Source: Elusimicrobiaceae bacterium
Lineage (GTDB): Bacteria; Elusimicrobiota; Elusimicrobia; Elusimicrobiales; Elusimicrobiaceae
DNA length: 33,143 bases
Assembly: GCA_016281355.1 (NCBI GenBank)
Contig: JAEEIL010000038.1
Span: 1 to 33,143, forward strand
Direction: 5' to 3'
The notes beneath the pieces were generated by a model. It was not told where the DNA came from. It searched no databases and saw only the letters and a list, made by a program, of their open reading frames with translations. This document shows positions 11,378 to 25,631 of this stretch, piece by piece (positions within the stretch are counted from its first letter, which is position 1; the number at the start of each line of letters is the position of its first letter). The translations under genes and the position numbers were made by a program.

Positions 11378-11406
11378 ATTATAGAAAAATTAGGTATATA
11401 TTTCAA
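11378..11406 (-). promoter_or_regulatory. Promoter of pyrR
   Basis: On the minus strand TTGAAA (11401-11406) is separated by 17 bp from TATAAT (11378-11383), close to the ideal housekeeping promoter. The -35 lies in the last codons of the upstream TPR gene. The predicted start of transcription is roughly 20 nt before ATG 11351, so there is no room for a regulatory leader. Confidence 0.75.
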
Positions 11407-12442
11407 GATAGGTGTGCAGGCCTTCTGCTTGTGCCCGTCTAACAGCGGCAAAATAAATTTTGTCTGCTTTAGCTTTATCACCCAACGCATAAATAACTTG
11501 TGCAAGGGAAATTTCCGTCAAAAGTTGACCACGTATTTCATCGGAATTAGCAAATAATTTTTTAGCTTCTTCCAAGACCGCTAATGCTTGCTTTAATTTG
11601 TTTTGACGCTTTAAAACATCGGCTTGCCCCCATTTAACAAAGCCGAGGTCAACAGTATCATGTATCGCTGTATAAAGCAATGCGGCACGTTTATAGTGTT
11701 TGCTCGCTTTATCTAAAAATCCGGCCTGCCTTAAACCGTTTGCCATACCGCAATTTGTATATGCTTTGCCAAAGATATCTTGTGTTTTAGCAAATAACTT
11801 TTCCGCCTTTTCATAATTTAATACGCAATTTTTTGCATCCCCGCTGACACGCAAAATACCGGCAAGCCCGCATAAAGCATAAGCCATAGAGATTTTATCT
11901 TTAATAACAGAAGCGTATTTATAACTCTGTTTAAATAAATTTATGCCTTCTTTAAAATCCCCCTCAAGACGGCAAATACCGCCCAAAGCCCAAGCAATAA
12001 ATGAAAGGCCTTCATAATCTTTTTCGCTTTGATAATACTCCTGTACTTCTTTAAGCAAAATTTTTGATTCTTTTAATTTACCTTCGGCGCGAAGGGCCAA
12101 AGCAAGTTCCTGCAATGCCAAAATAGCTGCATCAAGCAATTGTTCTTTACGGGCAATTTCCCCGGCGCTTGTAGCAAATTTTTGAGCTTCTTTTGCTTTA
12201 CCGAGCGTACGGTAACATTTGGATAAAGCAAGCAATATATCAATTTTTTCCTCTGCAATTTTGGCAATTTTTTGCGCTTTTTTTGCCTCCGTTATTGCTT
12301 CTTCAAATTTACCGAGGAGGCGGTAAGCCTCACTTTTTATAAAATAAAAATAACTGTCTTTACCTTTATAAGAAAGCAAAATTTCTAAAACTTCGGCGGG
12401 TTTGTTTTCATTTAATAAATTTTCTAATTTTTCTTTATCCAT
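11390..12442 (-). CDS. TPR-repeat protein, last gene of the pilus operon
   Basis: A 350-aa protein made almost wholly of tetratricopeptide-like helical pairs of about 40 residues. At least seven are visible, for example SYFYFIKSEAYRLLGKFEEAITEAKKA, ISMAYALCGLAGILRVSGDAKNCVLNYEKAEKLF and AYTNCGMANGLRQAGFLDKASKHYKRAALLY. No signal peptide or transmembrane helix is seen, so it should be cytosolic. I start it at ATG 12442 (MDKEKLENLL), not at the farther in-frame Met at 12553, because the latter would lie inside the upstream peptidase gene and the sequence between lacks TPR character. The start is one base after the peptidase's stop, indicating coupling. Repeat units alternate alanine, glycine and cysteine at equivalent places. 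The role is unknown; TPRs mediate protein contacts. Confidence 0.82.
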   Translation of the reverse strand: MDKEKLENLLNENKPAEVLEILLSYKGKDSYFYFIKSEAYRLLGKFEEAITEAKKAQKIAKIAEEKIDILLALSKCYRTLGKAKEAQKFATSAGEIARKEQLLDAAILALQELALALRAEGKLKESKILLKEVQEYYQSEKDYEGLSFIAWALGGICRLEGDFKEGINLFKQSYKYASVIKDKISMAYALCGLAGILRVSGDAKNCVLNYEKAEKLFAKTQDIFGKAYTNCGMANGLRQAGFLDKASKHYKRAALLYTAIHDTVDLGFVKWGQADVLKRQNKLKQALAVLEEAKKLFANSDEIRGQLLTEISLAQVIYALGDKAKADKIYFAAVRRAQAEGLHTYLEIYT

Positions 12443-12443
12443 A

Positions 12444-13496
12444 TTACTTACCGTTGTTGTTTTTAATTTTTTTACGGCCCATTGCTTGAAACGCAGTAAG
12501 CCAATACCAAAAATCTTTCTCAAAATCCAAGATATTTTGATATTTATAAGCAATTTTTAGGGCTTCCTCTTCACTTGGACGAACCATAATTTTCTTACCA
12601 TCTTCAGATAAAATCGGTTTGCCGTTTGTATCTGTTTTAACAGAATATCTTGCAAGTGTCGTCATAAATTGCTGGAATTGCATACGCTTATTAGCGGTTA
12701 TGGAATTATTGGATCTAAACAAGAATCGGACCATCGCATAAGCTTGTAAATACCAATCATCTACTTTGTCGTTTGCAAGGGCCTTGTCATAAGAATCAGG
12801 TTCCATAAAATCAACAAAATTTTGGAAGAATACCACTTTATCTGAAACCGCAAATTTACGCAGGGCTTCTTTCTCTTTTTGGCTTAGGCCACCCGTTTCC
12901 TTGCGCTTTTTTAAAGTCTCATACTCTCCACCTGAAAAGATATTTATAACTATTAAATCATTATTCCAAACACCGCCCTTAGGTGTTTGGGCTATATCTT
13001 CCATATTTACTGCGAGGCCTTCATTAAGCCATACAGGCGGTTCTCTACGAGGAGCTTTGGAGTTTGGAGGATTAAAGGTGTTTTCTACAAACAAATGTGT
13101 AAGTTCATGTGTAAACTTCTTCATCATTCGTTTTTGATGATCCGGCTCATCATACATAACAATGATATTCCTACCCGGATCAAAAAGAGCACCGGACCAA
13201 TCTTCTGCGATATCATGGTTATGCATTAAAAAACTTTTTTTATCTTGATAGACTTCGACACTGACTTTACTGGGAATCATCCACGCAATATTTTGACGCA
13301 ACATTTGAAATACATTATTAAATTGCATAGCAAGATTGGGGGTCATCATCCCACGTGTATGAGGTTCAATTTTTATTTGGAAACCACCTAAATTGCTATT
13401 TACCCATTTTATATCACTTGTTTTATCTTGTGCCAGGCAAAGCAATACCCCTGATACAAATAATAAAACAAAAAGTAATATTTTTTTAATTTGCAT
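12444..13496 (-). CDS. Secreted peptidase MA-like (gluzincin) metalloprotease
   Basis: A 350-aa protein with a Sec signal peptide (about 1-23, cleavage near CLAQ). The zinc motif HELTH is at residues 130-134, with the downstream glutamate in WLNEGLAVNMED (Glu159). This is the HExxH...E layout of gluzincins of the peptidase_MA-like domain. The region before it (DWSGALFDPGRNIIVMYDEPD) matches the family's usual strand preceding the active-site helix. A helical C-terminal half follows (YLQAYAMVRFLFRSN). It should be periplasmic or exported. It begins 6 nt after the stop of the last prepilin-like gene, and the TPR gene follows one base after its own stop. Possible targets are pilins or surface proteins, which is inference only. 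Confidence 0.86.
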   Translation of the reverse strand: MQIKKILLFVLLFVSGVLLCLAQDKTSDIKWVNSNLGGFQIKIEPHTRGMMTPNLAMQFNNVFQMLRQNIAWMIPSKVSVEVYQDKKSFLMHNHDIAEDWSGALFDPGRNIIVMYDEPDHQKRMMKKFTHELTHLFVENTFNPPNSKAPRREPPVWLNEGLAVNMEDIAQTPKGGVWNNDLIVINIFSGGEYETLKKRKETGGLSQKEKEALRKFAVSDKVVFFQNFVDFMEPDSYDKALANDKVDDWYLQAYAMVRFLFRSNNSITANKRMQFQQFMTTLARYSVKTDTNGKPILSEDGKKIMVRPSEEEALKIAYKYQNILDFEKDFWYWLTAFQAMGRKKIKNNNGK

Positions 13497-13502
13497 TTGT
13501 TA

Positions 13503-13865
13503 TTATTGGCCTGCGTTTACATCTACATTGACAGTAAACTGCGTGGTTACCGTATAATTACCTTCTACATTTTCACCGTCAGTAGCATTCATCATAATGT
13601 TACCGACACTGCCATTCGCTTGGAAGAAACGGCAGTTCATGGACAAATTTGAGCCCGGCGGTTCACCCAATAATTCAGAAGTAGCCTGATAAGCCATATA
13701 CTGATCTAAACAACTGTCAGCAACTATTTGTGCTTCTAAAATTCGGGCTGATCTTGACAAATTGGCAGTTCTTGTAACGGCATATCTAAGCATTAGAACC
13801 GCAAAAGCCGCAACAATTAAACCTATAACTAAAACTTGCATTAAAGCAGAACCTTTTTTAGACAT
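13503..13865 (-). CDS. Prepilin-like minor protein lacking Glu5 (GspK/PilX-like position)
   Basis: A 120-aa protein beginning MSKKG|SALMQVLVIGLIVAAFAVLMLRYA, with a short basic leader, Gly at -1 and one hydrophobic helix, as in type IV prepilins. Position +5 is Gln, not the usual Glu. In type II secretion GspK and some PilX-like minor pilins also lack Glu5, and it is the last of the prepilin run, as gspK is. It is much shorter than typical GspK (about 300 aa), so the equivalence is by position and motif only. The soluble part is beta-rich with two cysteines (DSCLDQY, NCRFFQ). The start codon abuts the stop of the previous gene. Confidence 0.78.
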   Translation of the reverse strand: MSKKGSALMQVLVIGLIVAAFAVLMLRYAVTRTANLSRSARILEAQIVADSCLDQYMAYQATSELLGEPPGSNLSMNCRFFQANGSVGNIMMNATDGENVEGNYTVTTQFTVNVDVNAGQ

Positions 13866-14549
13866 TTAAACACCCCTCCTTGTGGGTAAAATATGGCTGA
13901 CTCTGAAATAAACATCCGGGATATCTTGACCAAAATTTCTCTTAATTTCATATTGCGCCACCATATCATCACCACTAGTGATGCTGAAGCCATTAACATA
14001 TGGCATTACCACTTCCCTATTGCTTTCATTAGAACAATAACTATGCGCTGTGCTAATTAATGTTGATATTGACATATCGGAAGTTGTTTCAAGGAAATTA
14101 TTAGTACAACGATAAACCATGTGATTGTCTGCATCGTAAACATAAATTACATAAGAAGGTTTTATGCAATGGCCGGTCATACCATCCAACCCTTCCAACC
14201 ACTGATTATTTGAAGTTCCGCAAACAGGGGCCGTTGTTCTTGAAATTTTAGGACTACTTATATCACTATAATCTATAACTGCGTTTTTGATTGCTATATA
14301 CTCATTACTGTGGGTGCATGAAGGTAGACCGGGATACACTCTCGGACAAATAACATCACTTGCAAAAACGAAATCAGAATAAAGTTTCCTAAGAAAAATG
14401 GTACTATCGTTTTTTATGATAGATTGGCGTTGTGCTTGGGCTGTATGATTAGAAGAAGTTTTCCACATGGCAACCAAAGAAAGCATTACCATACCTGTAA
14501 TAAAGATGGATACCAATAATTCCATTAAGGTAAAGCCCTTCTTTGTCAT
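13866..14549 (-). CDS. Minor prepilin, PilW/GspJ-like
   Basis: A 227-aa prepilin with leader MTKKG and mature start FTLMELLVSIFITGMVMLSLVAMWK (Glu5 present). A large C-terminal globular part contains several cysteines (VICPRVYPGLPSC, APVCGTS, GHCIKPS, RCTNNF, SYCSNES). Length and position in the gene order fit a PilW/GspJ-type minor pilin. I start it at ATG 14549, which overlaps the previous stop as ATGA and has GGAGG at the right distance, and not at the upstream in-frame TTG at 14564, which would extend the leader unnaturally. Minor pilins prime pilus assembly at the inner membrane. Confidence 0.82.
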   Translation of the reverse strand: MTKKGFTLMELLVSIFITGMVMLSLVAMWKTSSNHTAQAQRQSIIKNDSTIFLRKLYSDFVFASDVICPRVYPGLPSCTHSNEYIAIKNAVIDYSDISSPKISRTTAPVCGTSNNQWLEGLDGMTGHCIKPSYVIYVYDADNHMVYRCTNNFLETTSDMSISTLISTAHSYCSNESNREVVMPYVNGFSITSGDDMVAQYEIKRNFGQDIPDVYFRVSHILPTRRGV

Positions 14550-14998
14550 AATGCCTCCTGACAATTTGCCTGTATATCTAAAATTTCAAAATTTTGCAAA
14601 GGAACAGAAGTTGGCTCCGCTCCGGGAGTTGTGGAAAGAAAAGCACTCGGATTATTAGCGGAAGTCGTATCGGTGATCTCATATGTAAAAGCCCTGGTAG
14701 TACCGGAACACACATTATCAAAATTAAAGGTAAAAAACTGATTACAACCAATTATACTCTGAGGCCCGGTAAAAGAGAAAACTCCGATACAACTTCTTAA
14801 ACTGCAATTTGTATTTGAACGACAATCTTTAATAGCAGCATAGGCACTATCTATGGCATATAAAACTTCTTCCCTTTCAGAAGATGCAATCATAGCACGC
14901 CTGCTGGACATTAAAGCAGAAAACACTGCCCCCACCATGACAACCACCAAAAACATGGCTATTACTGCTTCCATTATTGTGTAACCTTTATTTTTCAT
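14546..14998 (-). CDS. Minor prepilin, PilV/GspI-like
   Basis: A 150-aa prepilin with leader MKNKG and mature start YTIMEAVIAMFLVVVMVGAVFSALMSSRRAM (Glu5 present). The MEAVIAMFLV pattern is typical of PilV/GspI proteins. The C-terminal part has cysteine pairs (DCRSNTNCSLRSCIG, IIGCNQFF, DNVCSG, ANCQEAL). A GGTGG ribosome site precedes the start. The stop overlaps the start of the PilW/GspJ-like gene, so the two are translated together, as I and J often are. Confidence 0.82.
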   Translation of the reverse strand: MKNKGYTIMEAVIAMFLVVVMVGAVFSALMSSRRAMIASSEREEVLYAIDSAYAAIKDCRSNTNCSLRSCIGVFSFTGPQSIIGCNQFFTFNFDNVCSGTTRAFTYEITDTTSANNPSAFLSTTPGAEPTSVPLQNFEILDIQANCQEAL

Positions 14999-15021
14999 AA
15001 TTTTACCACCAATAAAATGTA

Positions 15022-15510
15022 TTAATCACATTCATCTTTACCTTCTCTACACACCCTACCCAAAGCATCCATACAAGCGCATCTGCCATTATATGACCCT
15101 GCATTATCATTACCTACCATGGAAATCACAGGGACAACACCGTTATTCGTACAAGCCACGCAGCTGGGATTTCCTAATGTAAAAGAATATCTGCTTTGAA
15201 CATCCTCACTGGGCCTTATATATTTACAGCTTACTAATGTCTGCGGGCCAACTTGTAAATTTGATGCACCATAAAAATCTGATATCTTACATTTAAAATA
15301 TGCAGATGCCTCAGTAACTGTTACACCAGGATAATCTTTTTCAAAATTCATACGGGCTTCATTAAGTTCCCTCATATAATTAAGTGCTTTAGCATTATGG
15401 GCATCATCTATATAACCTCTAACGAAAGGAGCACTTAAAGTAGCCAAAATAGTCAAAATAGCTATGACAGCCAACATTTCCGCTAAAGTAAAAGCTTTTT
15501 TATTACTCAT
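15022..15510 (-). CDS. Cysteine-rich prepilin with Ala at -1
   Basis: A 162-aa prepilin-like protein starting MSNKKA|FTLAEMLAVIAILTILATLSAPFVRGY, with Glu5. The residue before the expected cleavage site is Ala, not the usual Gly, so processing by the prepilin peptidase may be less efficient or differ. The C-terminal domain holds eight cysteines, including CVAC and CAC pairs and a terminal VCREGKDECD, pointing to several disulfides. Its start overlaps the previous stop by one base (TAATG). It is probably a structural or minor pilin of this system; which one cannot be told from sequence. Confidence 0.8.
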   Translation of the reverse strand: MSNKKAFTLAEMLAVIAILTILATLSAPFVRGYIDDAHNAKALNYMRELNEARMNFEKDYPGVTVTEASAYFKCKISDFYGASNLQVGPQTLVSCKYIRPSEDVQSRYSFTLGNPSCVACTNNGVVPVISMVGNDNAGSYNGRCACMDALGRVCREGKDECD

Positions 15511-16001
15511 TATTGCACCTCTACCGTTGAATCAGTATTAGGGTTAAAGAAAGCACATTTGGGATATCCTTCTACTTGTTCTTTGGGAAGCATAAAAACT
15601 GTTAGCATATTAAGATTCCCTCCGCAATCACCACTACTGGGATTACCAAAATAGAAATCAAAATGAGAATCAAACCCTAAACTTCTTTCCACATCACCGC
15701 AACCGAAGATACTCATAACCCTGTTCCTAGGATCTGCACTTTGATAATCACATACCGCTGAATTAAGATCAGTGATATGCAAATTCCCTGCTAAGTTAGG
15801 CTCCCCGTGTTCTATTTTAAATCTTTCGACAGCACCACCCAGGGCCGCTAATTTTCCCCTTGCTGCCTTTACCTCGCCTTCCCTCATAGTAGTAGTATAA
15901 TGGTAAACTGCATAACTTGCAAGTACCGCAACTAAAATTACGGTAACAATTAATTCTATAAGAGTAAAACCTTTTTTAGTAAAACAATTAAATTTATTCA
16001 C
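15510..16001 (-). CDS. Prepilin (GspG/H- or PilA/PilE-like)
   Basis: A 163-aa prepilin with mature start FTLIELIVTVILVAVLASYAVYHYTTTMREGEVKAARGKLAALGGAVERFKIEHG, Gly at -1 and Glu5. The soluble domain is small with four Cys (AVCDYQS, FGCGDVER, GDCGGN, PKCAFF), the last two probably closing a C-terminal D-loop. The start is GTG at 16001, inside the last codons of the previous gene, with GAGG about 9 nt upstream; this gives a 10-residue leader MNKFNCFTKKG, a little long but within the family's range. The helix-to-domain arrangement is like that of major pseudopilins. Confidence 0.8.
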   Translation of the reverse strand: MNKFNCFTKKGFTLIELIVTVILVAVLASYAVYHYTTTMREGEVKAARGKLAALGGAVERFKIEHGEPNLAGNLHITDLNSAVCDYQSADPRNRVMSIFGCGDVERSLGFDSHFDFYFGNPSSGDCGGNLNMLTVFMLPKEQVEGYPKCAFFNPNTDSTVEVQ

Positions 16002-16500
16002 AATTATCTAACCTCGCTTTTTCAATAACTGCAGGGTTTGTTCTATTTATAGAAAAAGTATAACACTCTTCCACATCATCTTCCTGGTTATAAAAACGGC
16101 AAGTCGTAGATGCTAAAACAGAATCCCCCACCCCACCTATTACATACTGACAATCCAAAACGGCATCACCACCCCATAAAGAATAATCAGTTGAAGATCC
16201 CGGGCGAAACCCCCATCTCCCGGCGGCATTTTGCAAATACACATAACCTTGTTCTGTGTCCTCTTGGGTTAACTTTTGATAATTTTCCACATTAAAAACA
16301 CCGGAAATAGGATCTGCTTCGTGTACTTCATTATACAATTTTACTGCTGTTGTTAATTCTACTAAACCTATTTTCGCTTTCTCCATTTGGTTTGTCATAG
16401 CAGAATTTTTGAAAGACGGCGCGACAAGCAAAGCCAACACTGCAATAATCAAAGTAACGACGACAACTTCAATTAAAGTAAACCCTTTCTTGTTTATCAT
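15994..16500 (-). CDS. Prepilin (GspG/PilA-like), first of the prepilin run
   Basis: A 168-aa prepilin with leader MINKKG and mature start FTLIEVVVVTLIIAVLALLVAPSFKNSAMTNQMEKAKIGLVELTTAVKLYNEVH, Glu5 present. The globular part contains GYVYLQNAAGRWGFRP and cysteines in LDCQYVIG, TTCRFY, EECYTF and LDNCE. I chose ATG 16500, which follows the pilC stop by one base and has a GGGGGAT ribosome site, instead of the in-frame start at 16563, which would put 21 non-pilin residues inside pilC. Being the first after pilC, as gspG follows gspF, it is a candidate for the main subunit. Confidence 0.82.
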   Translation of the reverse strand: MINKKGFTLIEVVVVTLIIAVLALLVAPSFKNSAMTNQMEKAKIGLVELTTAVKLYNEVHEADPISGVFNVENYQKLTQEDTEQGYVYLQNAAGRWGFRPGSSTDYSLWGGDAVLDCQYVIGGVGDSVLASTTCRFYNQEDDVEECYTFSINRTNPAVIEKARLDNCE

Positions 16501-16501
16501 A

Positions 16502-17728
16502 TTATCCCCCAATCTGAGACATCTTAAATATCGGCAAGAAGATAGACAAAACAATAACTGCAATAATCGAACCTATGCCTACAATTAAAATTGGGTCAAT
16601 CAAAGCTGAGAAACGTGCCAAGAATTGGTTAACCTGTTCCTGATAAAAGGCAGATAGAGTTTCCATAATACTTGGCAAACGGCCTGATTCTTCACCCATG
16701 AGCATCATTTCTGTCATTAAACCGGGGAAAACTCTCGTTTTTCTAAAAGACTCTGATAAACTTTTACCTGATGCGACCTCATTTTTAGAATAAGTAATTG
16801 CATTTTTAATAATAACATTACCTACGAAAGATTCTTCCATAACTGTCAAAACGTTGATGATACTCACACCGCTGTTTAACAAAGTAGACATATTATTGAG
16901 CAACTTTTCAAAGTAAATGTTAGAAATAAATTTTCCGAATATCGGCATAGTTAAATGAAATTTATGCCAAACTTTTTTGCCGGAAGGTGTCGAAATGACC
17001 ATATAAAAAATAAATATTGCAAGGCCTATCAGTACAAGAATTAAAAACCAATGATCTGCCACCCCATTTGATACTTTTAAAACAATTTTTGTTATTGTAG
17101 GAAGTTCTATATCGAAATCTTTAAAAATCTCAGCAAATGTAGGAACTATACCAACAACAAAGTAAACCAAGACACCCATTGCCATAACGAACAAAACTGC
17201 AGGATATGAAACAGCGGTGACAATTTTACTCTTTAATGCTTCCTTAGCTTTGACATATTTTGCAACCTGCATCAAAGCATCTGCTAAATGACCGCCAACT
17301 TCACCGGCCTCAACCATAGAGATCCATGTGTGGTCAAATACTTTGGGATATTTATCCAAAGCTTCGTGCATAGAATTACCGCCTGCGATATCACGTGCAA
17401 CAGCAACTAAAACCGGCCCAAAACTTCTATCAGTAGAATATTCACCAAGGAGTGAAATAGCCCTAATTAACGGAACACCGCCGCTAAGCAATGTGGAGAG
17501 TTGTTCTGCAAAGAAAGCCAAAACGTGGCCGCTTGGCCTTTTGGAACCAACGCGTGCAGAGCCGAACATGGATGATAATGACGTTTTTGTCTTTTCAGGT
17601 TTTATTTCCAAAACAATAAAATTTTTCATCTGTAAGGCATAAATAGCCTTTTCCATAGTGTCAGCAGTTATGGAACTTCTGATATACTTCCCATTAGTAT
17701 CTTGAACTGTACAATTAAACTTCGGCAT
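16502..17728 (-). CDS. pilC: Inner-membrane platform protein PilC/GspF
   Basis: A 408-aa polytopic inner-membrane protein that connects the assembly ATPase to pilin polymerisation. The N-terminal segment (1-45, KFNCTVQDTNGKYIRSSITADTMEKAIYAL) is the family's small cytosolic domain. Two T2SSF domains follow, each starting with the typical AFFAEQLSTLLSGGVPLIRAISLLGEY and FEKLLNNMSTLLNSGVSIINVLTVMEE motifs. Each ends with MVEAGEVGGHLADAL or LMGEESGRLPSIMETLSAFYQEQVN. Transmembrane helices lie at about 170-195, 225-247 and 375-400. It lies directly after the ATPase gene and before the prepilins, the standard order. Confidence 0.94.
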   Translation of the reverse strand: MPKFNCTVQDTNGKYIRSSITADTMEKAIYALQMKNFIVLEIKPEKTKTSLSSMFGSARVGSKRPSGHVLAFFAEQLSTLLSGGVPLIRAISLLGEYSTDRSFGPVLVAVARDIAGGNSMHEALDKYPKVFDHTWISMVEAGEVGGHLADALMQVAKYVKAKEALKSKIVTAVSYPAVLFVMAMGVLVYFVVGIVPTFAEIFKDFDIELPTITKIVLKVSNGVADHWFLILVLIGLAIFIFYMVISTPSGKKVWHKFHLTMPIFGKFISNIYFEKLLNNMSTLLNSGVSIINVLTVMEESFVGNVIIKNAITYSKNEVASGKSLSESFRKTRVFPGLMTEMMLMGEESGRLPSIMETLSAFYQEQVNQFLARFSALIDPILIVGIGSIIAVIVLSIFLPIFKMSQIGG

Positions 17729-17739
17729 ATCTTCTCCTT

Positions 17740-19479
17740 TTATTCATTTGCTAAAGTAACGGAAAGAACTTCTTCCACCGTAGTAATACCCGTTACAGCT
17801 TTTCTCCAACCGCTCGCACGTAAATTCCAAGCCCCTGTACTTTGAGCAGCCTTTTTAAGTTCAATTAAATCTTTAGTCTGATAAATAGTGTTACGCATGT
17901 TTTCGTTAATTTTAAATACTTCATAAATTGCTTTTCTGCCCATATATCCTGTACCGGAACATTTCGGGCAACCTGACGCTTTGAAGAAAGTCCAAGTCGG
18001 CCTATCTTTAGAAGGTAAACCTGATTCCCTTAAAACCTGATCTATAGTACTTGGCCCCGGTACATACGGTACTTTACAATAAGGACATAATACCCTAACC
18101 AAACGCTGGGCAGCCACCAATGCAAGCGAACTGGCAAGTAAGAACGGTTCTATACCCATATCAATCAAACGGGGTACTGCACCGATGGCCTCATTTGTGT
18201 GCAAAGTGGAAAACACCAAGTGACCGGTCAAGGCTGCCTTTAAACAAGCCTCTGCAGTTTCAGAGTCCCTGACTTCACCGACCAGTATTACATCCGGGTC
18301 TTGACGCAAGAAAGAACGCAAACCAGCAGCAAAAGTTAAACCTATTTGAGGTTTAACTTGCACCTGGCTAATACCGGAGAGTTTATATTCTACCGGGTCT
18401 TCCAAAGTCATAAAATTAAATTCTGTACTTTTTATTGATGTTAAAACTGCGTTTAATGTAGTAGTTTTACCGGAACCTGTAGGACCGGTTAAGAAAATCA
18501 AACCGTGGGGTAAAGCAGCTGCTTCCAAGAAATCTTTTTTCTGTCTAGGTTCAAAACCTAATTTATCAATATTCAATTCACTGCTACCCTTATCCAAAAT
18601 ACGAATAACTAACTTTTCGCCGAAAACCGTAGGACATACTGAAACACGGAATTCTACTGTTCTATTTTGGAATTTTACTGCGAAACTTCCGTCTTGCGGT
18701 AAACGTTTTTCCGCGATATCAAGTTTTGATAAAATTTTTATACGGGAAATGATGGCCCCAACGTCTTCTTTTGCCGGGGAAGTTCTTTCATACAAAGAAC
18801 CGTCAATCCTAAAACGCAAACTGACCCTTTCATCAAACAGTTCCAAGTGAATATCAGACACCCTTTCAGTTAACGCTTGACGTAAAATAGCGTTAACCAT
18901 TTTAACATAATGGGCACCTGCACCGGAAAATTCCCTATCTAAGTCAATTTTTGCACCCGGGGCAGAAAGTTCATCTAAACTTTCGCCATCGGATACTTCT
19001 GTTTCTTCTTTAGCCTCGGAAATAACTTCCGCGAGTAAATCTTTTTTAGAGTAAAATGCATCGAGTGCTTGAAATAATTGTGACTTGCTTGCTATAAACG
19101 GTTGTATTTCAAGGCCACTCATCATGCGTAAATTGTCCAACAAAAATACGTTGGAAGGATCGTTCAAAGCAACTGCTAAAGTTCCGTCTTCCACGAATAA
19201 TGGTAATACGACATTTTCGCGGGCATACTTCTCCGGAACATACTTAGCTAGATTTTGATCTTTTTCAGGTATCAAAATGCCATTTTGCTTACTGGCATAA
19301 GGTACTGAAAGTTGTTTAGACATTGCTTGGATAAGTTCTTCTTCTTTGACGATGTCCAAAGCGACCAAGGCTTCGTTTAAAGAAACTTCGTTTTGTTTTG
19401 CATGCAGTTCGGCTTTATTTAAACCTTCCTTAGTTAACTTACCGCTTTCTATAAGAATATCTATCAACTGTTTTGCCAT
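17740..19479 (-). CDS. pilB: Type IV pilus / type II secretion assembly ATPase PilB/GspE
   Basis: A 579-aa hexameric ATPase of the GspE/PilB family that powers pilus or pseudopilus extension. The N-terminal MshEN-like domain (about 1-150: LIDILIESGKLTKEGLNKAELHAK, YVPEKYARENVVLPLFVEDGTLAVALNDP) is followed by ALTERVSDIHLE, the Walker A GPTGSGKTT (near residue 330), the Asp box and FMTLEDPVEY, Walker B DPDVILVGEVRDSETAE and the His box ALTGHLVFSTLHTN. The C-terminal zinc site is a CPYC...CPKC pair followed by GTGYMGRKAIYEV. All motifs of an extension ATPase are present. No PilT retraction ATPase is present in the window. Confidence 0.95.
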   Translation of the reverse strand: MAKQLIDILIESGKLTKEGLNKAELHAKQNEVSLNEALVALDIVKEEELIQAMSKQLSVPYASKQNGILIPEKDQNLAKYVPEKYARENVVLPLFVEDGTLAVALNDPSNVFLLDNLRMMSGLEIQPFIASKSQLFQALDAFYSKKDLLAEVISEAKEETEVSDGESLDELSAPGAKIDLDREFSGAGAHYVKMVNAILRQALTERVSDIHLELFDERVSLRFRIDGSLYERTSPAKEDVGAIISRIKILSKLDIAEKRLPQDGSFAVKFQNRTVEFRVSVCPTVFGEKLVIRILDKGSSELNIDKLGFEPRQKKDFLEAAALPHGLIFLTGPTGSGKTTTLNAVLTSIKSTEFNFMTLEDPVEYKLSGISQVQVKPQIGLTFAAGLRSFLRQDPDVILVGEVRDSETAEACLKAALTGHLVFSTLHTNEAIGAVPRLIDMGIEPFLLASSLALVAAQRLVRVLCPYCKVPYVPGPSTIDQVLRESGLPSKDRPTWTFFKASGCPKCSGTGYMGRKAIYEVFKINENMRNTIYQTKDLIELKKAAQSTGAWNLRASGWRKAVTGITTVEEVLSVTLANE

Positions 19480-19507
19480 TTTAACGATCCTTCCAATTTA
19501 AAACTGA

Positions 19508-21073
19508 TTATTCAGACAACACCGTAGGAGTTATGAAAATAACCAAGTCTGTTGTGCTCTTAGTTTTCTGTTTAGAGGTAAATAACCAACCAAGTATTGG
19601 TATTTGACCGAGTAAAGGCACTTTATAAACTGTTTCTTTTTCCGTAGATTGCAACAGACCGCCGAGAACAACTGTTTGACCGCTCTTAACGCGAACTTGT
19701 GTTGTAACGGCACGGGTAACAGTATCATAAGTATCACCCATTTCTGATGCGACAAGATCAGAATAAGAAGGAAGTACGGTTAAAGTAACATAACCTTCTT
19801 TATTTACTTGAGGTGTTACAGTTAAAGTTAAACCGACTCTCTTTCTTTCAGTACCACTGGTACTGCTTTCTGAACTTTCATTTGTTTTAGTTATTTTGCC
19901 GATTGAAGCATCCCTAGAAGATGTAACCATTGCTTGGTTATTATTCATTGTAATAACTTTAGGTTTACCTAAAGAACGGGCTTCTTGGTTTTGCATCATA
20001 GCTTGGAAAACCAAAAATACATTATCGCTATCGCCCCATGAAAGTTCCGGAGCTGTAGCATTATCAGGATCAGCAGCTCTTACACCAAAATATCTTAATA
20101 CTTTATTACCTTCTCTGGCACCAAAGTATTTCCACGGCATTTCCGTTTTACCGCCGGTTAAAGTACCTTGTATATTCCAGTGAAAACCAACATCATAACC
20201 GCTACCTTTTGAAACTTCAATTACTTGTGCTTCAATTAAAATTTGCGGTGCTTTGATATCAAGTTCATCTAAAATGCTTTCAATTTGTGGGAAAACTTCC
20301 GGAACATCTGTAATAATCATTTTGTTAGTTCTGGAATCAACAGCAATTCTCCCTTGTTTTGTAAGCACACTTTGAATAACTGCCAAAATAGCACTGCTTC
20401 CGTCACCGGAAATGGTTTGTTGGGAAGAATTATTTAATGAGAACCCAGGGCCGCCTACACCACCGCTGGAAGAACTGTCAAACACATTGAAAGAAGTACT
20501 ACCGCCATTACTAAAACTGCTGCTTGACACATCAGTAGGCATGACGGAATTTAAATCTGTCGATATAGATGTATTAGGTTGCAAAGACACATAATTTAAA
20601 GTATAAACTTTTGTTATGGTATTAGGAGCTTCCTCAGAACGATTCGTAATAACGTAAGAATCACTCTTACCAACTCTTTGATAAGTCAACCCTTGTACTC
20701 TTAAAAGAGTATCTAACGCTTCACGGACAGTAACATTTGTTAAAGAGGCAGAAATTTTCTTGCCTGAAAATTCTTCCCCCATAATAAAGTTAATCCTTGA
20801 TTGAGCGGAAATACTGTTTAAGAAAGTACCTATAGGAACATTGTTTACCCTGATAGTTACTTTTCTGTCTAACGGAGAGACTGCATCTGCCCGCTTATAT
20901 AAGGAAGGTTCTGTCCCTTGGCTTATTCTGCCATTGGATTCTTCCCCGTAATCATCTACTACGTCTACCTTCGGGCCTGATGTAGTTTTCGTTCCTTGTG
21001 CCAAGGCAACTTGAGAACACAATTGAAACGAAGCAAACACCAGTACCAAAGTGAGTGCTATACTTTTTTTCAT
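19508..21073 (-). CDS. pilQ: Outer-membrane secretin (PilQ/GspD family)
   Basis: A 521-aa secretin with a Sec signal peptide (about 1-25). Domain order: an STN-like N-domain (about 68-150: VTIRVNNVPIGTFLNSISAQSRINFIMGEEF), an N1/NolW-like domain interrupted by a Ser/Gly-rich insert (about 175-220), then RIAVDSRTNKMIITDVPEVFPQIESILDELDIKAPQILIEAQVIEV, and the C-terminal secretin pore ending VRVKSGQTVVLGGLLQSTEKETVYKVPLLGQIPILGWLFTSKQKTKSTTDLVIFITPTVL. This is the usual secretin signature. It forms the channel for the pilus or secreted cargo. No AMIN domains are seen, so it is shorter than proteobacterial PilQ. It follows the PilP-like gene, as in pilMNOPQ. Confidence 0.93.
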   Translation of the reverse strand: MKKSIALTLVLVFASFQLCSQVALAQGTKTTSGPKVDVVDDYGEESNGRISQGTEPSLYKRADAVSPLDRKVTIRVNNVPIGTFLNSISAQSRINFIMGEEFSGKKISASLTNVTVREALDTLLRVQGLTYQRVGKSDSYVITNRSEEAPNTITKVYTLNYVSLQPNTSISTDLNSVMPTDVSSSSFSNGGSTSFNVFDSSSSGGVGGPGFSLNNSSQQTISGDGSSAILAVIQSVLTKQGRIAVDSRTNKMIITDVPEVFPQIESILDELDIKAPQILIEAQVIEVSKGSGYDVGFHWNIQGTLTGGKTEMPWKYFGAREGNKVLRYFGVRAADPDNATAPELSWGDSDNVFLVFQAMMQNQEARSLGKPKVITMNNNQAMVTSSRDASIGKITKTNESSESSTSGTERKRVGLTLTVTPQVNKEGYVTLTVLPSYSDLVASEMGDTYDTVTRAVTTQVRVKSGQTVVLGGLLQSTEKETVYKVPLLGQIPILGWLFTSKQKTKSTTDLVIFITPTVLSE

Positions 21074-21104
21074 TACTTCCTCCTAATTTTTAAACTACAA
21101 ATCT

Positions 21105-21602
21105 TTACAACAAAGGCAATTTTCGTTGAAACCTTTGCCCTTTATATGTAAACCAAACGGAATCATCCGTAATGGATACAACTTTCGCTCCTAAAACTTT
21201 AGAGCCAATATTAACTACTTCACCGTTAACAATAGCTTCTTTACCTAAAATACCGTCAACGCGAATCTTATACATAATAGCACGGGCCGGGTAACGCCTT
21301 ATTTCATCTTCAAGAATTTTTTGCCTCATTAAACGCTCTCTTTCCAATTCCGCCTGACGTCTGCGTTCCGCCTCTTCTTCAGCCAATCTGCGTTGTTCGG
21401 CTTTTTTAGCTTGGTCTATTTTAATAACTTCTTCTTTAGATAAAAATGGGTTTCTTTTACCGGGATTAAAAGAAACTTTTTTAGCCCCTGCCGCACTTTT
21501 AAAGCCTGCATTTGCCTTGTCATTCTTTATATTTTGGGCATTAACAATAGCCCCAAAACATAAACTCAAGACTATAAAGGTATATATAAGTTTATTTTTC
21601 AT
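21105..21602 (-). CDS. PilP-like periplasmic protein
   Basis: A 165-aa protein with a signal peptide (about 1-22) or N-terminal anchor, a motif FNPGKRNPFLSKEE (about 46-58) that resembles the RDPF region of PilP, a highly charged, Arg/Glu-rich helix (about 66-100, AEQRRLAEEEAERRRQAELERERLMRQ), and a C-terminal small beta domain (about 105-165: MYKIRVDGILGKEAIVNGEVVNIGSKVLGAKVVSITDDSVWFTYKGQRFQRKLPLL). The beta domain has the shape of PilP/GspC homology-region domains, which contact the secretin. Its position between the PilO-like gene and the secretin supports the same assignment. It has a GGAGG site and overlaps the PilO-like gene's stop. Confidence 0.78.
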   Translation of the reverse strand: MKNKLIYTFIVLSLCFGAIVNAQNIKNDKANAGFKSAAGAKKVSFNPGKRNPFLSKEEVIKIDQAKKAEQRRLAEEEAERRRQAELERERLMRQKILEDEIRRYPARAIMYKIRVDGILGKEAIVNGEVVNIGSKVLGAKVVSITDDSVWFTYKGQRFQRKLPLL

Positions 21603-22191
21603 TCTTGCCTCCTACAAAAGTAGGAAAATCTTTATCCTGTATAAAAACGGTATTGGTATTAAAAGTGACATTTAATTTTTCCGTTGTTTCCCCTTGTTTA
21701 CGGCTTATTCTTAAATCAGATACGCGCATAAAAGTAGGGCTGTTTTCTATTGTTTCCATAAGACGCCCTAATTGGTCAAAAGTAATATCCCCCTTAACAG
21801 GAATAGTCGATATCGTAAATACACCATCGGAATTTTGGATTTCATTGCCTTTAGACCAAGAATCTTTCGGTAAACCGACTTTTTCCATTATGGAGATAAG
21901 TTCCGTCTGGTGCCAAAAAGATTTCTGCGTATTAGGTGGCAATTCCTCCGTTAATTTTTTATACTTGGCTTTACTCTTTAAATAATCTTCCCTGTTTTCC
22001 ACTTCCACTGCCTGAGCCTCCGCCTTCTTTTTCATTCCTATTATTTGATCGGATGTACCTTTATATAAGGACCAAGCAACAATAACAACTACCAATAACA
22101 CTACAAACGGCCTTAAAAAAGGTTTAAAATTCCTATCTTTTATCATCGTGGAGGCATCAGTCATGCCTGTTTTAATATCTTCTATTTTCAT
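21592..22191 (-). CDS. PilO/GspM-like inner-membrane assembly protein
   Basis: A 199-aa bitopic protein: a cytosolic N-terminus, one transmembrane helix (about 28-46, FLRPFVVLLVVVIVAWSLY), a helical coiled region (about 50-95) and a ferredoxin-like periplasmic domain (DGVFTISTIPVKGDITFDQLGRLMETIENSPTFMRVSDLRIS), as expected for PilO. I chose ATG 22191 (MKIEDIKTG), one base after the stop of the PilM-PilN gene, instead of the GTG at 22206 inside that gene, which has no ribosome site. PilN and PilO form heterodimers that link the cytosolic ring to PilP and the secretin. Confidence 0.8.
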   Translation of the reverse strand: MKIEDIKTGMTDASTMIKDRNFKPFLRPFVVLLVVVIVAWSLYKGTSDQIIGMKKKAEAQAVEVENREDYLKSKAKYKKLTEELPPNTQKSFWHQTELISIMEKVGLPKDSWSKGNEIQNSDGVFTISTIPVKGDITFDQLGRLMETIENSPTFMRVSDLRISRKQGETTEKLNVTFNTNTVFIQDKDFPTFVGGKNEK

Positions 22192-22192
22192 T

Positions 22193-23773
22193 TTACTTAT
22201 TCCCACACTTTACAATAAATTTTGTACCTAAAACAAAGGCCTCGCCTCTGTTTTTTATCGCACTATCGGTATTATAAGTTATATTTGCTGTATTTTTACA
22301 TAAATCGGCGAAATCCAAGTCAGAAGATAAATTAGATTTGAATTTATCACCCAAAACCAATTCCTCTTTATTACCGGAAATACTGCTGGCCACGCCTTCT
22401 ATTGCCAAAGTGGCATTGCTTTTTTTGATATCAAAATTATAAGGATAATCTATAACTACCCCTGAAAGCCAAATATCTTCAGGCAAAGTCCTCGGCAACG
22501 CGGAAAGTTTTTTAGTAAAGTACGGATCAACTAATAAATTTTCCAATTTCTTAGTATTACTTTTCAAATTCGCAACCCTTGCTTTAATTTGGTCTGCATA
22601 CAATCCCTGAAAATCCGTCACCTCTTTCTGATCTTTTTTACTAGCCTTTAATTGAACCGTAGTAATAACAGATGATATTTGCATGAATAAAATATAAAGT
22701 ATTATTAACACGGAAACAGCACCTGCAATCAGCCAAGCAAACATTGTGGCACCGATTTCTTCATCGCTGGAACGGTTACTCTTATAAAAGTCTATATCAG
22801 GTACTTTTTTATTAACAAATTTGAGACAGGCACCTAAAACAGCCATTTCCGAAAAACCTTCCACTTTAAAACCGAAAACCTCGCTTATTTTGCTTGTTCT
22901 AACGTGTTGTTTGACTTCCCCTTCAACTATGTATACCCAAAAGTCCCCATCATCGGAAACTATAGCAACATCTTCAAAAGGATTCCTTTCAAGTTGTTTG
23001 GAAATAAAATCCATACAATTTGTAATTTCCAAACGGTTTCTTGCCCCCAAGGCTTTTTGAACTTCAACTTCCCTAGACATCAAAGGAACTTCGTTTAATG
23101 CAAACAGAAATTGCCCGTGGTTAGAAGTAAAATTTGCATATATAATACCTTTTTGCTCAGAGTTATCTTTATCTACTTGTGTTAAAAGACGATAGGTAGA
23201 TATAGCGGAACATTCCACAGAAACCAAGTTAAGCCCTATTTTTTTCATGCCGGATTCTAACGCAGAAATTATTTTGGCTGAAGTCATGCAAAAAACTACG
23301 CCGAGTTTCTGGGTTTTGCTTAAAGGTGCATTGAAAGGATAAACATAAAAGTCATATACACCCTTTTCAAAAGGATAATGTATATACTTTCTTGCCTGCA
23401 GGGGTATTGTTTGTTTCCAATAAGCGCGGGCTATATTTTGAATTACGAAATGCCTGTGAATACAAAAAGCAGGATCCAGAGAAATAACAACATTTTTCGT
23501 ATTAAAATCTCTATTTTCTAAAATTTTTTGTATAGGATCAAGCCAATGTTTTGTTGTAGCAAAAAAACCTTCATTTAATTCTGCAGGTTTTAAGTTTTCC
23601 TGTGGAACATCACTGATAGGTAATTTTATCAGCGAATTAACCTCCATCCCGCCTGCAACGGTAGTAACTTGCGCGACATAAACATCAGTCAAGGAAATAT
23701 GTATACCTATACATTCCACGTAATCAGAACGCTTTATGCCAGAAAATTTGTCAAAAATATTAGCTATGTCCAT
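22193..23773 (-). CDS. PilM-PilN fusion (GspL-like) assembly protein
   Basis: A 526-aa protein that joins two functions usually on separate proteins. Residues 1-325 look like the actin-fold PilM/GspL cytosolic domain (YVECIGIHISLTDVYVAQV; VVISLDPAFCIHRHFVI; YANFTSNHGQFLFAL; MAVLGACLKF). A short linker (PDIDFYKSN) leads to one transmembrane helix (343-366) and a periplasmic PilN-like part with a coiled coil (about 370-420) and a C-terminal fold. GspL has the same cytosolic-TM-periplasmic plan. The actin-like fold binds the cytosolic tail of PilN in the separate-protein system, so fusion fixes the stoichiometry. It follows the exported OmpA/FlgD-like gene and precedes the PilO-like gene by one base. 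The domain call is from pattern only. Confidence 0.78.
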   Translation of the reverse strand: MDIANIFDKFSGIKRSDYVECIGIHISLTDVYVAQVTTVAGGMEVNSLIKLPISDVPQENLKPAELNEGFFATTKHWLDPIQKILENRDFNTKNVVISLDPAFCIHRHFVIQNIARAYWKQTIPLQARKYIHYPFEKGVYDFYVYPFNAPLSKTQKLGVVFCMTSAKIISALESGMKKIGLNLVSVECSAISTYRLLTQVDKDNSEQKGIIYANFTSNHGQFLFALNEVPLMSREVEVQKALGARNRLEITNCMDFISKQLERNPFEDVAIVSDDGDFWVYIVEGEVKQHVRTSKISEVFGFKVEGFSEMAVLGACLKFVNKKVPDIDFYKSNRSSDEEIGATMFAWLIAGAVSVLIILYILFMQISSVITTVQLKASKKDQKEVTDFQGLYADQIKARVANLKSNTKKLENLLVDPYFTKKLSALPRTLPEDIWLSGVVIDYPYNFDIKKSNATLAIEGVASSISGNKEELVLGDKFKSNLSSDLDFADLCKNTANITYNTDSAIKNRGEAFVLGTKFIVKCGNK

Positions 23774-23788
23774 ATATTCCCCTAATAC

Positions 23789-25558
23789 TTAAAATTCACC
23801 GGAATCGAACTCTTCCCCCGTACTTGTAGTAGTTTCATAGGAATTATTTGTGGATCCATAAGAACTTACTTCCATACTTGTTTCTTGCTCTTGCGGGACA
23901 TCCGCTACTCCTGTACTACTCTCAGAAACTGTTTGTGTAGTTTGTGTAACAGATACCACTGAAGAAGTCTGTGAACTTTCTTCTTCATCCACCGTACCTA
24001 CTTGCCTTTTACCTGGTTTAGTCCAAAGTCTCTTTTGAGTATAATCCAATTCTTTGTCCTTATTTGCTTCCGCTTTGGCTTTCTCTATATTGGCTACTTC
24101 AGATTCAGTTTTTATAATGATTACATCTTCTCTTTCCGGGCCTTCCTTTAAAACAAGTTGACGTTTTAAAATGCGTTCACGCCCGGCAATATCTTTAGCC
24201 CTAAGTACAAGAGTATATTTGCCGAGCGGCAATAAATGCCCGAAGTATCTCTTATGTCCGTTCCAGAAAGTTTGATAATTTAAAGCACCGTCACCGGAGA
24301 GTTGTTTTACTACGTAATAGTGATCATCTGCGTTATGGCTGACAATTTGTAATACCCATTCTTTGATTGAAGTGGAACCTTCCATAACAGAGAAGTCTAT
24401 TACAAAAACTTCCCCGGCTGAAGGTGTAATTTCTTCAAAAGGATAAACAGCCAAACTTAACACCGGCGGTAAATTTTTATCTTGCAATTTAGATTTTAAA
24501 CGTGATACGCCATCATAATCAAACACAATTGATATACCTGCTAAATTACTAAATTTTTCAGGCGGTTCTTGTGTTGTTAAGCCCATGTTTAAGTTCATTT
24601 TTGAAGGTGACATACCACGGTTTATTAAGTATGTATTGAGTGCAACTGCCTGACGTACTGCGTGCAAGGTTACATCATCTGTATAACTTCCTTCAGGTAA
24701 AATAACATAGGAAGGAGAATTTTCTAAAATCATCAAAGCATAAACGTCATCAAGTATAGGCGAAGATATCTTGCTTATTGAAGGGCCGGCAAATAATGCA
24801 GCGGAATTAATATCGATCGCATCCACACGTCCACCGCGCATATAAACCTGAACATCTTCTTCCGCATTTAACTTTGCGACCAAAGAATCTATCATTTCTT
24901 TTCTTTTTTGTTTTTCTGCTTTCTTTTGTAAAGAACGTACTTTTGATTTGCTGCCTCTGGGGAAAGAAGAATCTTCGGTAGTTACAAGTTCCTCTTCGGT
25001 AACTTCGGTAACTGCTTCCTCAGAAGTTGTTTGTTGTTCCCCTTCATTTTGGTCTTCTTGTGCCTCTCCTTGAGAATCTGCAACGGTTTCTTCCGCTTTT
25101 GCTTCTTCACTTTGTTGTTGATAGCCGAAAGGATCTGCTTCCATTTCAGATGTTGCAGGCTCAGGGATATCTTCCAAATCGTCGGTCATATAAACTTCTC
25201 TAAAAATACCTGCTTGTTGATTGCTGGAAGTTTCGCCGGAACTTTTTCCTGCTTTTGAGCCGGATTTATGAAGGTTTTCTATTTCCTGATCATAAGGAAT
25301 TTGTTTGGGAGGAACAACCCCACCTCTATCGAAATGAATTAAGTTAACGTACTCATTAGCTTCGGAAATTTGATCCGCATTACCGCTAACAAAAACATCT
25401 ATAAAACTGTCCATTGCTTCTTCATAACGACCGTCCGCATAAAGTCTTTTCCCCTTTGACAAAGATTCTTCAGCCCTATTCCCCGAAGCTAAAAGCAAAG
25501 AGGATAATGCGAAACAAAAACCAAATAACAACACAAAAATCTTTAATTTTAATTTCAT
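23789..25558 (-). CDS. Exported multidomain protein (TPR, OmpA-like and FlgD-Ig-like), first gene of the pilus operon
   Basis: A 589-aa protein with a Sec signal peptide (about 1-25). A short TPR-like helix pair follows (GKRLYADGRYEEAMDSFIDVF), then a long acidic, low-complexity linker (about 90-215, rich in Glu, Gln, Ser, Thr). Next come an OmpA-like alpha/beta region (about 235-330, VRQAVALNTYLINRGMSPSKMNLNMG), a beta-sandwich like FlgD Ig domains (about 360-465, WNGHKRYFGHLLPLGKYTLVLRAKD), and a Ser/Thr-rich disordered tail. It leads the operon with a good ribosome site and promoter. A role in anchoring the machine to peptidoglycan or the outer membrane would fit, but that is inference; the full architecture does not match a family I can name. 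Confidence 0.75.
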   Translation of the reverse strand: MKLKLKIFVLLFGFCFALSSLLLASGNRAEESLSKGKRLYADGRYEEAMDSFIDVFVSGNADQISEANEYVNLIHFDRGGVVPPKQIPYDQEIENLHKSGSKAGKSSGETSSNQQAGIFREVYMTDDLEDIPEPATSEMEADPFGYQQQSEEAKAEETVADSQGEAQEDQNEGEQQTTSEEAVTEVTEEELVTTEDSSFPRGSKSKVRSLQKKAEKQKRKEMIDSLVAKLNAEEDVQVYMRGGRVDAIDINSAALFAGPSISKISSPILDDVYALMILENSPSYVILPEGSYTDDVTLHAVRQAVALNTYLINRGMSPSKMNLNMGLTTQEPPEKFSNLAGISIVFDYDGVSRLKSKLQDKNLPPVLSLAVYPFEEITPSAGEVFVIDFSVMEGSTSIKEWVLQIVSHNADDHYYVVKQLSGDGALNYQTFWNGHKRYFGHLLPLGKYTLVLRAKDIAGRERILKRQLVLKEGPEREDVIIIKTESEVANIEKAKAEANKDKELDYTQKRLWTKPGKRQVGTVDEEESSQTSSVVSVTQTTQTVSESSTGVADVPQEQETSMEVSSYGSTNNSYETTTSTGEEFDSGEF

Positions 25559-25603: not shown

Positions 25604-25631
25604 ATTATATCAATTTATCAGCATTTGTAAA
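25604..25631 (-). promoter_or_regulatory. Promoter of the pilus operon
   Basis: Minus strand TTTACA (25626-25631), 16-bp spacer, TATAAT (25604-25609). The distance to ATG 25558 gives a leader of about 40 nt containing GAGAGG. The 14-kb run of genes that follows has no other clear promoter until pyrR. Confidence 0.72.

What the first reader, a model, noticed from the sequence alone, without database searches (positions are those of the whole stretch)
11390..25558. Hybrid pilus/secretion operon: PilMNOPQ-like envelope complex with GspG-H-I-J-K-like prepilin order
Fifteen same-strand genes, most with overlaps or one-base gaps, encode a PilM-N fusion, PilO-, PilP- and secretin-like proteins, one extension ATPase, one platform protein and six prepilins. 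The last three follow the I-J-K order (the last lacking Glu5), which is a type II secretion tip arrangement, whereas the envelope genes follow the pilMNOPQ order. No PilT is seen. The machine could be a secretion pseudopilus, a non-retracting pilus or a DNA-uptake system.
Basis: partly seen in the sequence, partly recalled or inferred. Interest (0 to 1): 0.6.

Follow-up and report, generated by a model that had tools for sequence, protein, structure and literature searches.

The report
Elusimicrobia-specific type IV filament machine
A gut Elusimicrobium genome carries a complete operon for a pilus-like machine that belongs to neither the usual type IV pili nor the usual type II secretion systems, and it is the only machine of that broad class (besides a Tad pilus) left in a bacterial family that has meanwhile multiplied its pilin genes to as many as a hundred.

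Summary
Fifteen minus-strand genes (11390-25558) encode an OmpA/TPR-like protein, a PilM-PilN fusion, PilO-, PilP- and secretin-like proteins, one extension ATPase, one platform protein, six prepilins ending I-J-K (K has Gln5), a putative metallopeptidase and a TPR protein. The order recurs in 15 further Elusimicrobia loci and in class relatives. Trees of ATPase and platform protein put the machine in its own well-supported clade within class Elusimicrobia, apart from the phylum's T4aP and T2SS. Its envelope proteins are Pil-type, not Gsp-type. "No PilT" is true of the locus only: the genome has two, and PilT occurs in the same genomes as PilB-type ATPases across 120 Elusimicrobiota. PilT1 descends from the T4aP-cluster PilT, although the T4aP ATPase, platform and secretin are gone. 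Prepilin matches number 12-106 in gut relatives against 6-11 in free-living ones. Best reading: a dynamic type IV filament machine assembling this variable pilin repertoire. The locus is not new to databases (the likely E. minutum genome has it), but I found no description of it as a third lineage.

The parts
25604..25631 (-). candidate sigma-70-like promoter (TTTACA-16-TATAAT, 11/12, extended -10) just upstream of the first operon gene
   Evidence: joint best score in the region; consensus match only
23789..25558 (-). secreted TPR + OmpA-like (peptidoglycan-binding-like) + beta-sandwich protein, 589 aa
   Evidence: no Pfam hit; weak profile match to OmpA C-domain and BamD/FimV TPR; model with confident domains matches MotB/Pal/OmpA domains
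22193..23773 (-). PilM-PilN fusion, 526 aa
21592..22206 (-). PilO-like, 204 aa
   Evidence: weak PF04350; conserved position
21105..21602 (-). PilP/GspC-like periplasmic protein, 165 aa
   Evidence: weak T2SSB match; conserved position
19508..21073 (-). secretin, 521 aa (STN, Secretin_N, Secretin)
17740..19479 (-). extension ATPase (PilB/GspE superfamily), 579 aa, intact Walker A and tetracysteine motif
16502..17728 (-). platform protein (PilC/GspF superfamily), 408 aa
15994..16500 (-). prepilin 1, Glu5 (start ATG at 16500), GspG/ComGC-like N terminus
15510..16001 (-). prepilin 2, Glu5
15022..15510 (-). prepilin 3, Glu5 (KKA^FTLAE), with Ala instead of Gly at -1
   Evidence: sequence read directly
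14546..14998 (-). I-like minor prepilin, Glu5
13866..14549 (-). J-like minor prepilin, Glu5 (start ATG at 14549; ORF can extend to 14564)
13503..13865 (-). K-like minor prepilin with Gln5, 120 aa
12444..13496 (-). secreted peptidase MA-like protein (HELTH motif), 350 aa, co-conserved
   Evidence: PF13485 at 8e-7, just under the curated cut-off
11390..12442 (-). cytoplasmic TPR protein, 350 aa (ORF can extend to 12553)
25651..30349 (-). two Wzy_C (O-antigen ligase family) + TPR membrane proteins upstream of the operon in most relatives; possible pilin glycosylation ligases, separate promoter likely
   Evidence: role is inference

Best explanation
The operon encodes a complete envelope-spanning type IV filament machine of a lineage found only in class Elusimicrobia in this sampling. 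PilM-N, PilO and PilP form the alignment complex, the secretin the outer-membrane pore, and the ATPase and platform drive extension. The I-J-K minor prepilins form the priming tip, with K (Gln5) outermost. The filament shaft and tip effectors come from the genome's many scattered PilE/ComP-like prepilins, matured by the single PilD, some carrying large Cys-rich C-terminal modules (modular pilins). PilT1, kept after loss of the T4aP machine, and perhaps PilT2, act on this machine to retract or disassemble it. Main use: adhesion and surface display in the gut, with DNA uptake possible (ComEC is present). Shown: gene content, conservation, clade membership, PilT and prepilin co-occurrence. Inferred: filament formation, retraction, pilin-machine pairing, function.
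For: Separate 100/98 ATPase clade, 100/100 platform clade and 100/100 joint clade. Pil-type envelope proteins. It is the only non-Tad ATPase of extension type, platform and secretin in the genome (Tad operon read). PilB-family and PilT-family matches each occur in 94 of 120 genomes, and all 20 negatives listed are the same genomes. PilT1 branches with T4aP-cluster PilTs and keeps an AIRNLIRE-like motif, AVRSIIRD. One PilD. Prepilin counts 35, 12, 76, 106, 53 in gut relatives against 6-11 in free-living f2/f7. The free-standing f2/f7 pilins most similar to the scattered ones are the PQYFKVVEK type (up to 100 bits), not the PilA type. ComP_DUS-like pilin domain in large prepilins.
Against: No filament has been observed; from memory, the E. 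minutum genome paper reported no appendages on micrographs. PilT1 is split across two frames in the likely E. minutum genome G034, so it is not needed everywhere. PilT genes are not in the operon. PilT2's AIRNLIRE-like motif is degenerate (QIKNSIED). Branching order among the new clade, T4aP and T2SS is unresolved. Prepilin number varies widely even within the genus (12 against 35).
Confidence: 0.55

Rival explanations
1. A type II secretion-like pseudopilus: the machine assembles short periplasmic pseudopili that push exoproteins through the secretin; the large prepilin-tagged proteins may be its cargo or surface-anchored products.
For: One compact operon holding ATPase, platform, secretin, major-type and I-J-K prepilins, as in T2SS. 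The secretin's best PDB match is a GspD and the platform's best NCBIfam match is GspF (under cut-off). PilT1 is broken in G034. From memory, the E. minutum genome paper assigned some of these genes to a T2SS.
Against: PilM/PilN-type rather than GspL-type protein; K of about 120 aa, not about 300; ATPase and platform outside the T2SS clades; bona fide T2SS loci exist elsewhere in the phylum and look different (L093, L095, L126); PilT is kept.
Confidence: 0.25
2. A DNA-uptake (competence) pilus: retraction by PilT1 brings DNA through the secretin to ComEC.
For: ComEC is present, two PilTs, ComP-like pilin domain matches, one prepilin gene about 0.6 kb from comEC. Competence genes are conserved in related Endomicrobium (PMC8809381).
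Against: ComEC is widespread (10 of 14 control genomes). Uptake alone does not explain dozens of prepilins. ComP_DUS matches are below the curated cut-off.
Confidence: 0.15
3. An ordinary T4aP whose sequences are merely divergent in this family.
For: Pil-type envelope set, PilT in the genome; T4aP is polyphyletic in published trees (PMC6668835).
Against: Free-living f2/f7 relatives carry both the canonical pilB-pilT-pilC cluster and this operon, and both ATPase and platform separate the two with full support.
Confidence: 0.05

Closest known systems
Type IVa pilus (PilMNOPQ-PilB-PilC-PilT; M. xanthus, P. aeruginosa, Geobacter)
   Same: PilM, PilN, PilO, PilP, secretin, extension ATPase, platform, minor I-J-K pilins with K lacking Glu5; PilT encoded in the genome
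   Different: PilM and PilN fused; ATPase and platform form a separate clade; no pilT in the operon; no PilA-type major pilin found; TPR/OmpA-like and peptidase MA-like proteins added
Type II secretion system (GspC-O)
   Same: compact single operon, E-F then prepilins ending I-J-K, PilP/GspC-like protein
   Different: PilM-N rather than GspL; K about 120 aa instead of about 300 aa; PilT present in the genome; outside the GspE/GspF clades; order L-M-C-D-E-F-G... instead of C-D-E-F-G-H-I-J-K-L-M
E. minutum Pei191 T2SS-like genes and about 60 pilE-like genes (Herlemann et al. 2009; recalled from memory, paper not held)
   Same: the operon is present in G034, a single contig of 1,643,562 bases that fits E. 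minutum (L127), with 76 prepilin matches
   Different: to my recollection some of these genes were assigned to a T2SS and the pilE-like genes were left unexplained; the separate clade, the PilT link and the family-wide expansion are added here
Modular pilins of Streptococcus sanguinis (PilB, PilC)
   Same: pilin module fused to a bulky C-terminal domain (PMC8179133, PMC9934059)
   Different: different, Cys-rich repeats of unknown fold; many genes; diderm host
Tad pilus on contig C4 of the same genome
   Same: type IV filament superfamily
   Different: separate operon with TadE-, CpaB/RcpC-, secretin-, TadZ/A-, TadB- and TadC-like genes (named from sequence)

Membership tests
Type IVa pilus | PilM, PilN, PilO, PilP, PilQ envelope set | tested here: met
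   (PilO and PilP matches weak; PilM-N fused)
Type IVa pilus | ATPase and platform branch with canonical T4aP PilB/PilC | tested here: not met
Type IVa pilus | PilT retraction ATPase in genome | tested here: met
   not in the operon
Type IVa pilus | PilA-type major pilin | tested here: not met
   no EGATKG-type pilin among the 28 prepilins read from the genome; present in free-living relatives; not every prepilin was read
Type IVa pilus | PilY1 tip adhesin | tested here: inconclusive
   PF05567 found nothing, but no control rang either
Type IVa pilus | surface filaments that extend and retract | not testable with these tools
   needs microscopy
Type II secretion system | GspE/GspF clade membership | tested here: not met
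Type II secretion system | GspL/GspM inner-membrane pair | tested here: not met
   protein matches PilM and PilN, no GspL match; GspL cytoplasmic fold ranks below PilM
Type II secretion system | large GspK (about 300 aa) without Glu5 | tested here: not met
   K is 120 aa (Gln5); GspK 303-327 aa in K-12, L093, L095, L126
Type II secretion system | exoprotein secretion | not testable with these tools
   needs secretome of a mutant
Tad pilus | TadA ATPase with split TadB/TadC platform | tested here: not met
   the window platform has both T2SSF domains in one protein; Tad is a separate operon on C4

The most novel reading that the evidence does not exclude
A third diderm type IV filament lineage, specific to class Elusimicrobia, that in gut species took over the retraction ATPase PilT1 of a lost T4aP and became the sole assembler of a family-wide repertoire of up to about a hundred variable, partly modular pilins.
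Probability: 0.35. Interest if true: 0.65.

Novelty: new variant of a known kind. Interest (0 to 1): 0.5.

Why it matters
It gives a machine to pair with the many unexplained pilE-like genes of gut Elusimicrobia. It also shows a type IV filament lineage that profile-based classification splits between T4aP and T2SS, and a case where a retraction motor outlived the pilus machine it came from. These points can be tested in cultivated E. minutum.

Tried and rejected
Bit scores alone could not decide (PilB 585 against GspE 550 bits, PilQ 215 against GspD 208), so trees were built. A lone ordinary T4aP with its pilT elsewhere was rejected because relatives carry both systems side by side. 'I-J-K order plus missing Glu5 means T2SS' was rejected on literature and K-12 sequences. 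PilT as a leftover with no link to the operon was considered: the co-occurrence and near-universal intactness in f1 argue against it, G034 argues for it in one species. c-di-GMP control was considered: an MshEN match exists (PF05157, 5e-18), but by eye the RLG motif residues are not kept, so it is not claimed. The PilY1 search failed its control. The E. minutum genome paper was not held. A separate secretin tree was not built; only profile scores support its grouping.

Full report
What is there. The window is contig C46 of a 1.5 Mb genome, 99.95% complete. Its PilM-N protein is 88% identical to that of a rumen Elusimicrobium MAG, and 14 of the 15 loci found with it are titled Elusimicrobia or Elusimicrobiota, the last an uncultured bacterium. 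Fifteen minus-strand genes run from 25558 down to 11390. Corrected starts and gaps: five overlaps, three gaps of 0-1 base, the largest gap 31 bases. A strong promoter-like site (11/12, extended -10) lies at 25631-25604, just before the first gene, so the two upstream Wzy_C genes are probably a separate unit, although they accompany the operon in most relatives.

Identity of the parts. Pfam and NCBIfam identify platform, ATPase, secretin and five prepilins. The 526-aa protein matches PilM at 1e-12 to 1e-13 and PilN at 0.036 in a profile search, all 23 aligned members match TIGR01175 PilM, and its model (mean pLDDT 83) matches PilM first and GspL later. The first gene has a TPR region, an OmpA-like domain and a beta-sandwich region, with low-confidence linkers. 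The last prepilin has Gln5, kept in 15 of 16 homologues.

Conservation. The order Wzy-Wzy-TPR/OmpA-MN-O-P-Q-B-C-prepilins-I-J-K-peptidase is repeated in 15 MAG loci as far as their contigs reach, the two most distant lacking detected Wzy genes in the stretch held, and in families f1, f2, f5 and f7 of class Elusimicrobia with some losses. It is present in G034, one contig of 1,643,562 bases, which I take to be E. minutum Pei191 from its size (inference).

Three lineages in one phylum. A PilB-profile search over 120 Elusimicrobiota found 94 positive genomes; gut family f1 has one copy each, f2 and f7 several. Neighbour genes show three kinds: pilB-pilT-pilC clusters (T4aP), D/E/F/G...K loci with a 303-321-aa GspK (T2SS), and the window type. 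In the ATPase tree the window type is a 100/98 clade of 20 rows (this includes two ATPases without recognised neighbours), the T4aP clade holds M. xanthus and Geobacter PilB, and T2SS references lie apart. The platform tree and the joint tree give the window type 100/100 with a long stem. The order among the three lineages is not resolved.

PilT. The genome has two PilTs. PilT1 (after gltX) branches with T4aP-cluster PilTs of f2 and f7; PilT2 sits in ftsA-ftsZ-pilT2-cmk in f1 and f2 (ftsA-ftsZ-pilT2 in f7) and is its own clade. All 34 f1 genomes listed have two full PilTs except G034, whose PilT1 is split over two frames. Genomes without a PilB-type ATPase, mostly one f9 genus, also lack PilT. 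Since the window genome has no other PilB-type ATPase, no other non-Tad platform and no other non-Tad secretin, the retained PilT most plausibly serves this machine. That is inference.

Prepilins. The genome has 35 prepilin matches at E <= 0.001, four of them in the operon (two operon prepilins score below that) and the others elsewhere. Gut relatives have 12 to 106, free-living f2/f7 relatives 6 to 11. The scattered ones share a nearly constant N terminus and differ in the rest; several are over 500 aa and Cys-rich. Their closest free-living matches are the PQYFKVVEK-type pilins, not the PilA-type EGATKG pilins, which were not found among the 28 read here. Weak ComP_DUS matches suggest a T4a pilin fold.

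Interpretation. The evidence favours a pilus-type machine of a separate lineage over a T2SS, at moderate confidence, because no filament or secretion data exist. The closest prior description, from memory, is the E. minutum genome paper, which assigned some of these genes to a T2SS and left about 60 pilE-like genes unexplained; it is not held here. A large survey of the superfamily notes Tad systems in Elusimicrobia and calls T4aP polyphyletic (PMC6668835). I found no paper that describes this lineage, within the open library searched.

Noticed in passing
L007:8095-9180 (G000 C23) and L163, L165, L167, L169, L171, L175, L177, L178: A PilT-family gene lies directly downstream of ftsZ (ftsA-ftsZ-pilT2-cmk) in gut and free-living Elusimicrobia; its AIRNLIRE-like motif is degenerate. 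A link between cell division and a PilT paralogue would be worth a look.
   Followed up: partly
L179:2492-3531: pilT1 of the likely E. minutum genome is split over two frames; other gut relatives have it intact.
   Followed up: partly
L021, L023, L024, L025, L029, L030, L036, L037, L038: Prepilin signal peptides on proteins of about 380 to possibly over 1000 aa with Cys-rich repeat-like C termini and no Pfam domain beyond the pilin part in the four scanned.
   Followed up: partly
G000 C4 (L005): Complete-looking Tad operon with a TadZ-TadA fusion (731 aa) and a short secretin (246 aa).
   Followed up: no
window 25651-30349: Two Wzy_C + TPR proteins adjacent to the operon across the class: candidate pilin O-glycosylation ligases.
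   Followed up: no
G000 C45:79710-81169: A prepilin gene about 0.6 kb from comEC.
   Followed up: no
window 15022-15510: Prepilin 3 has Ala at -1 of the processing site where the relatives have Gly.
   Followed up: no
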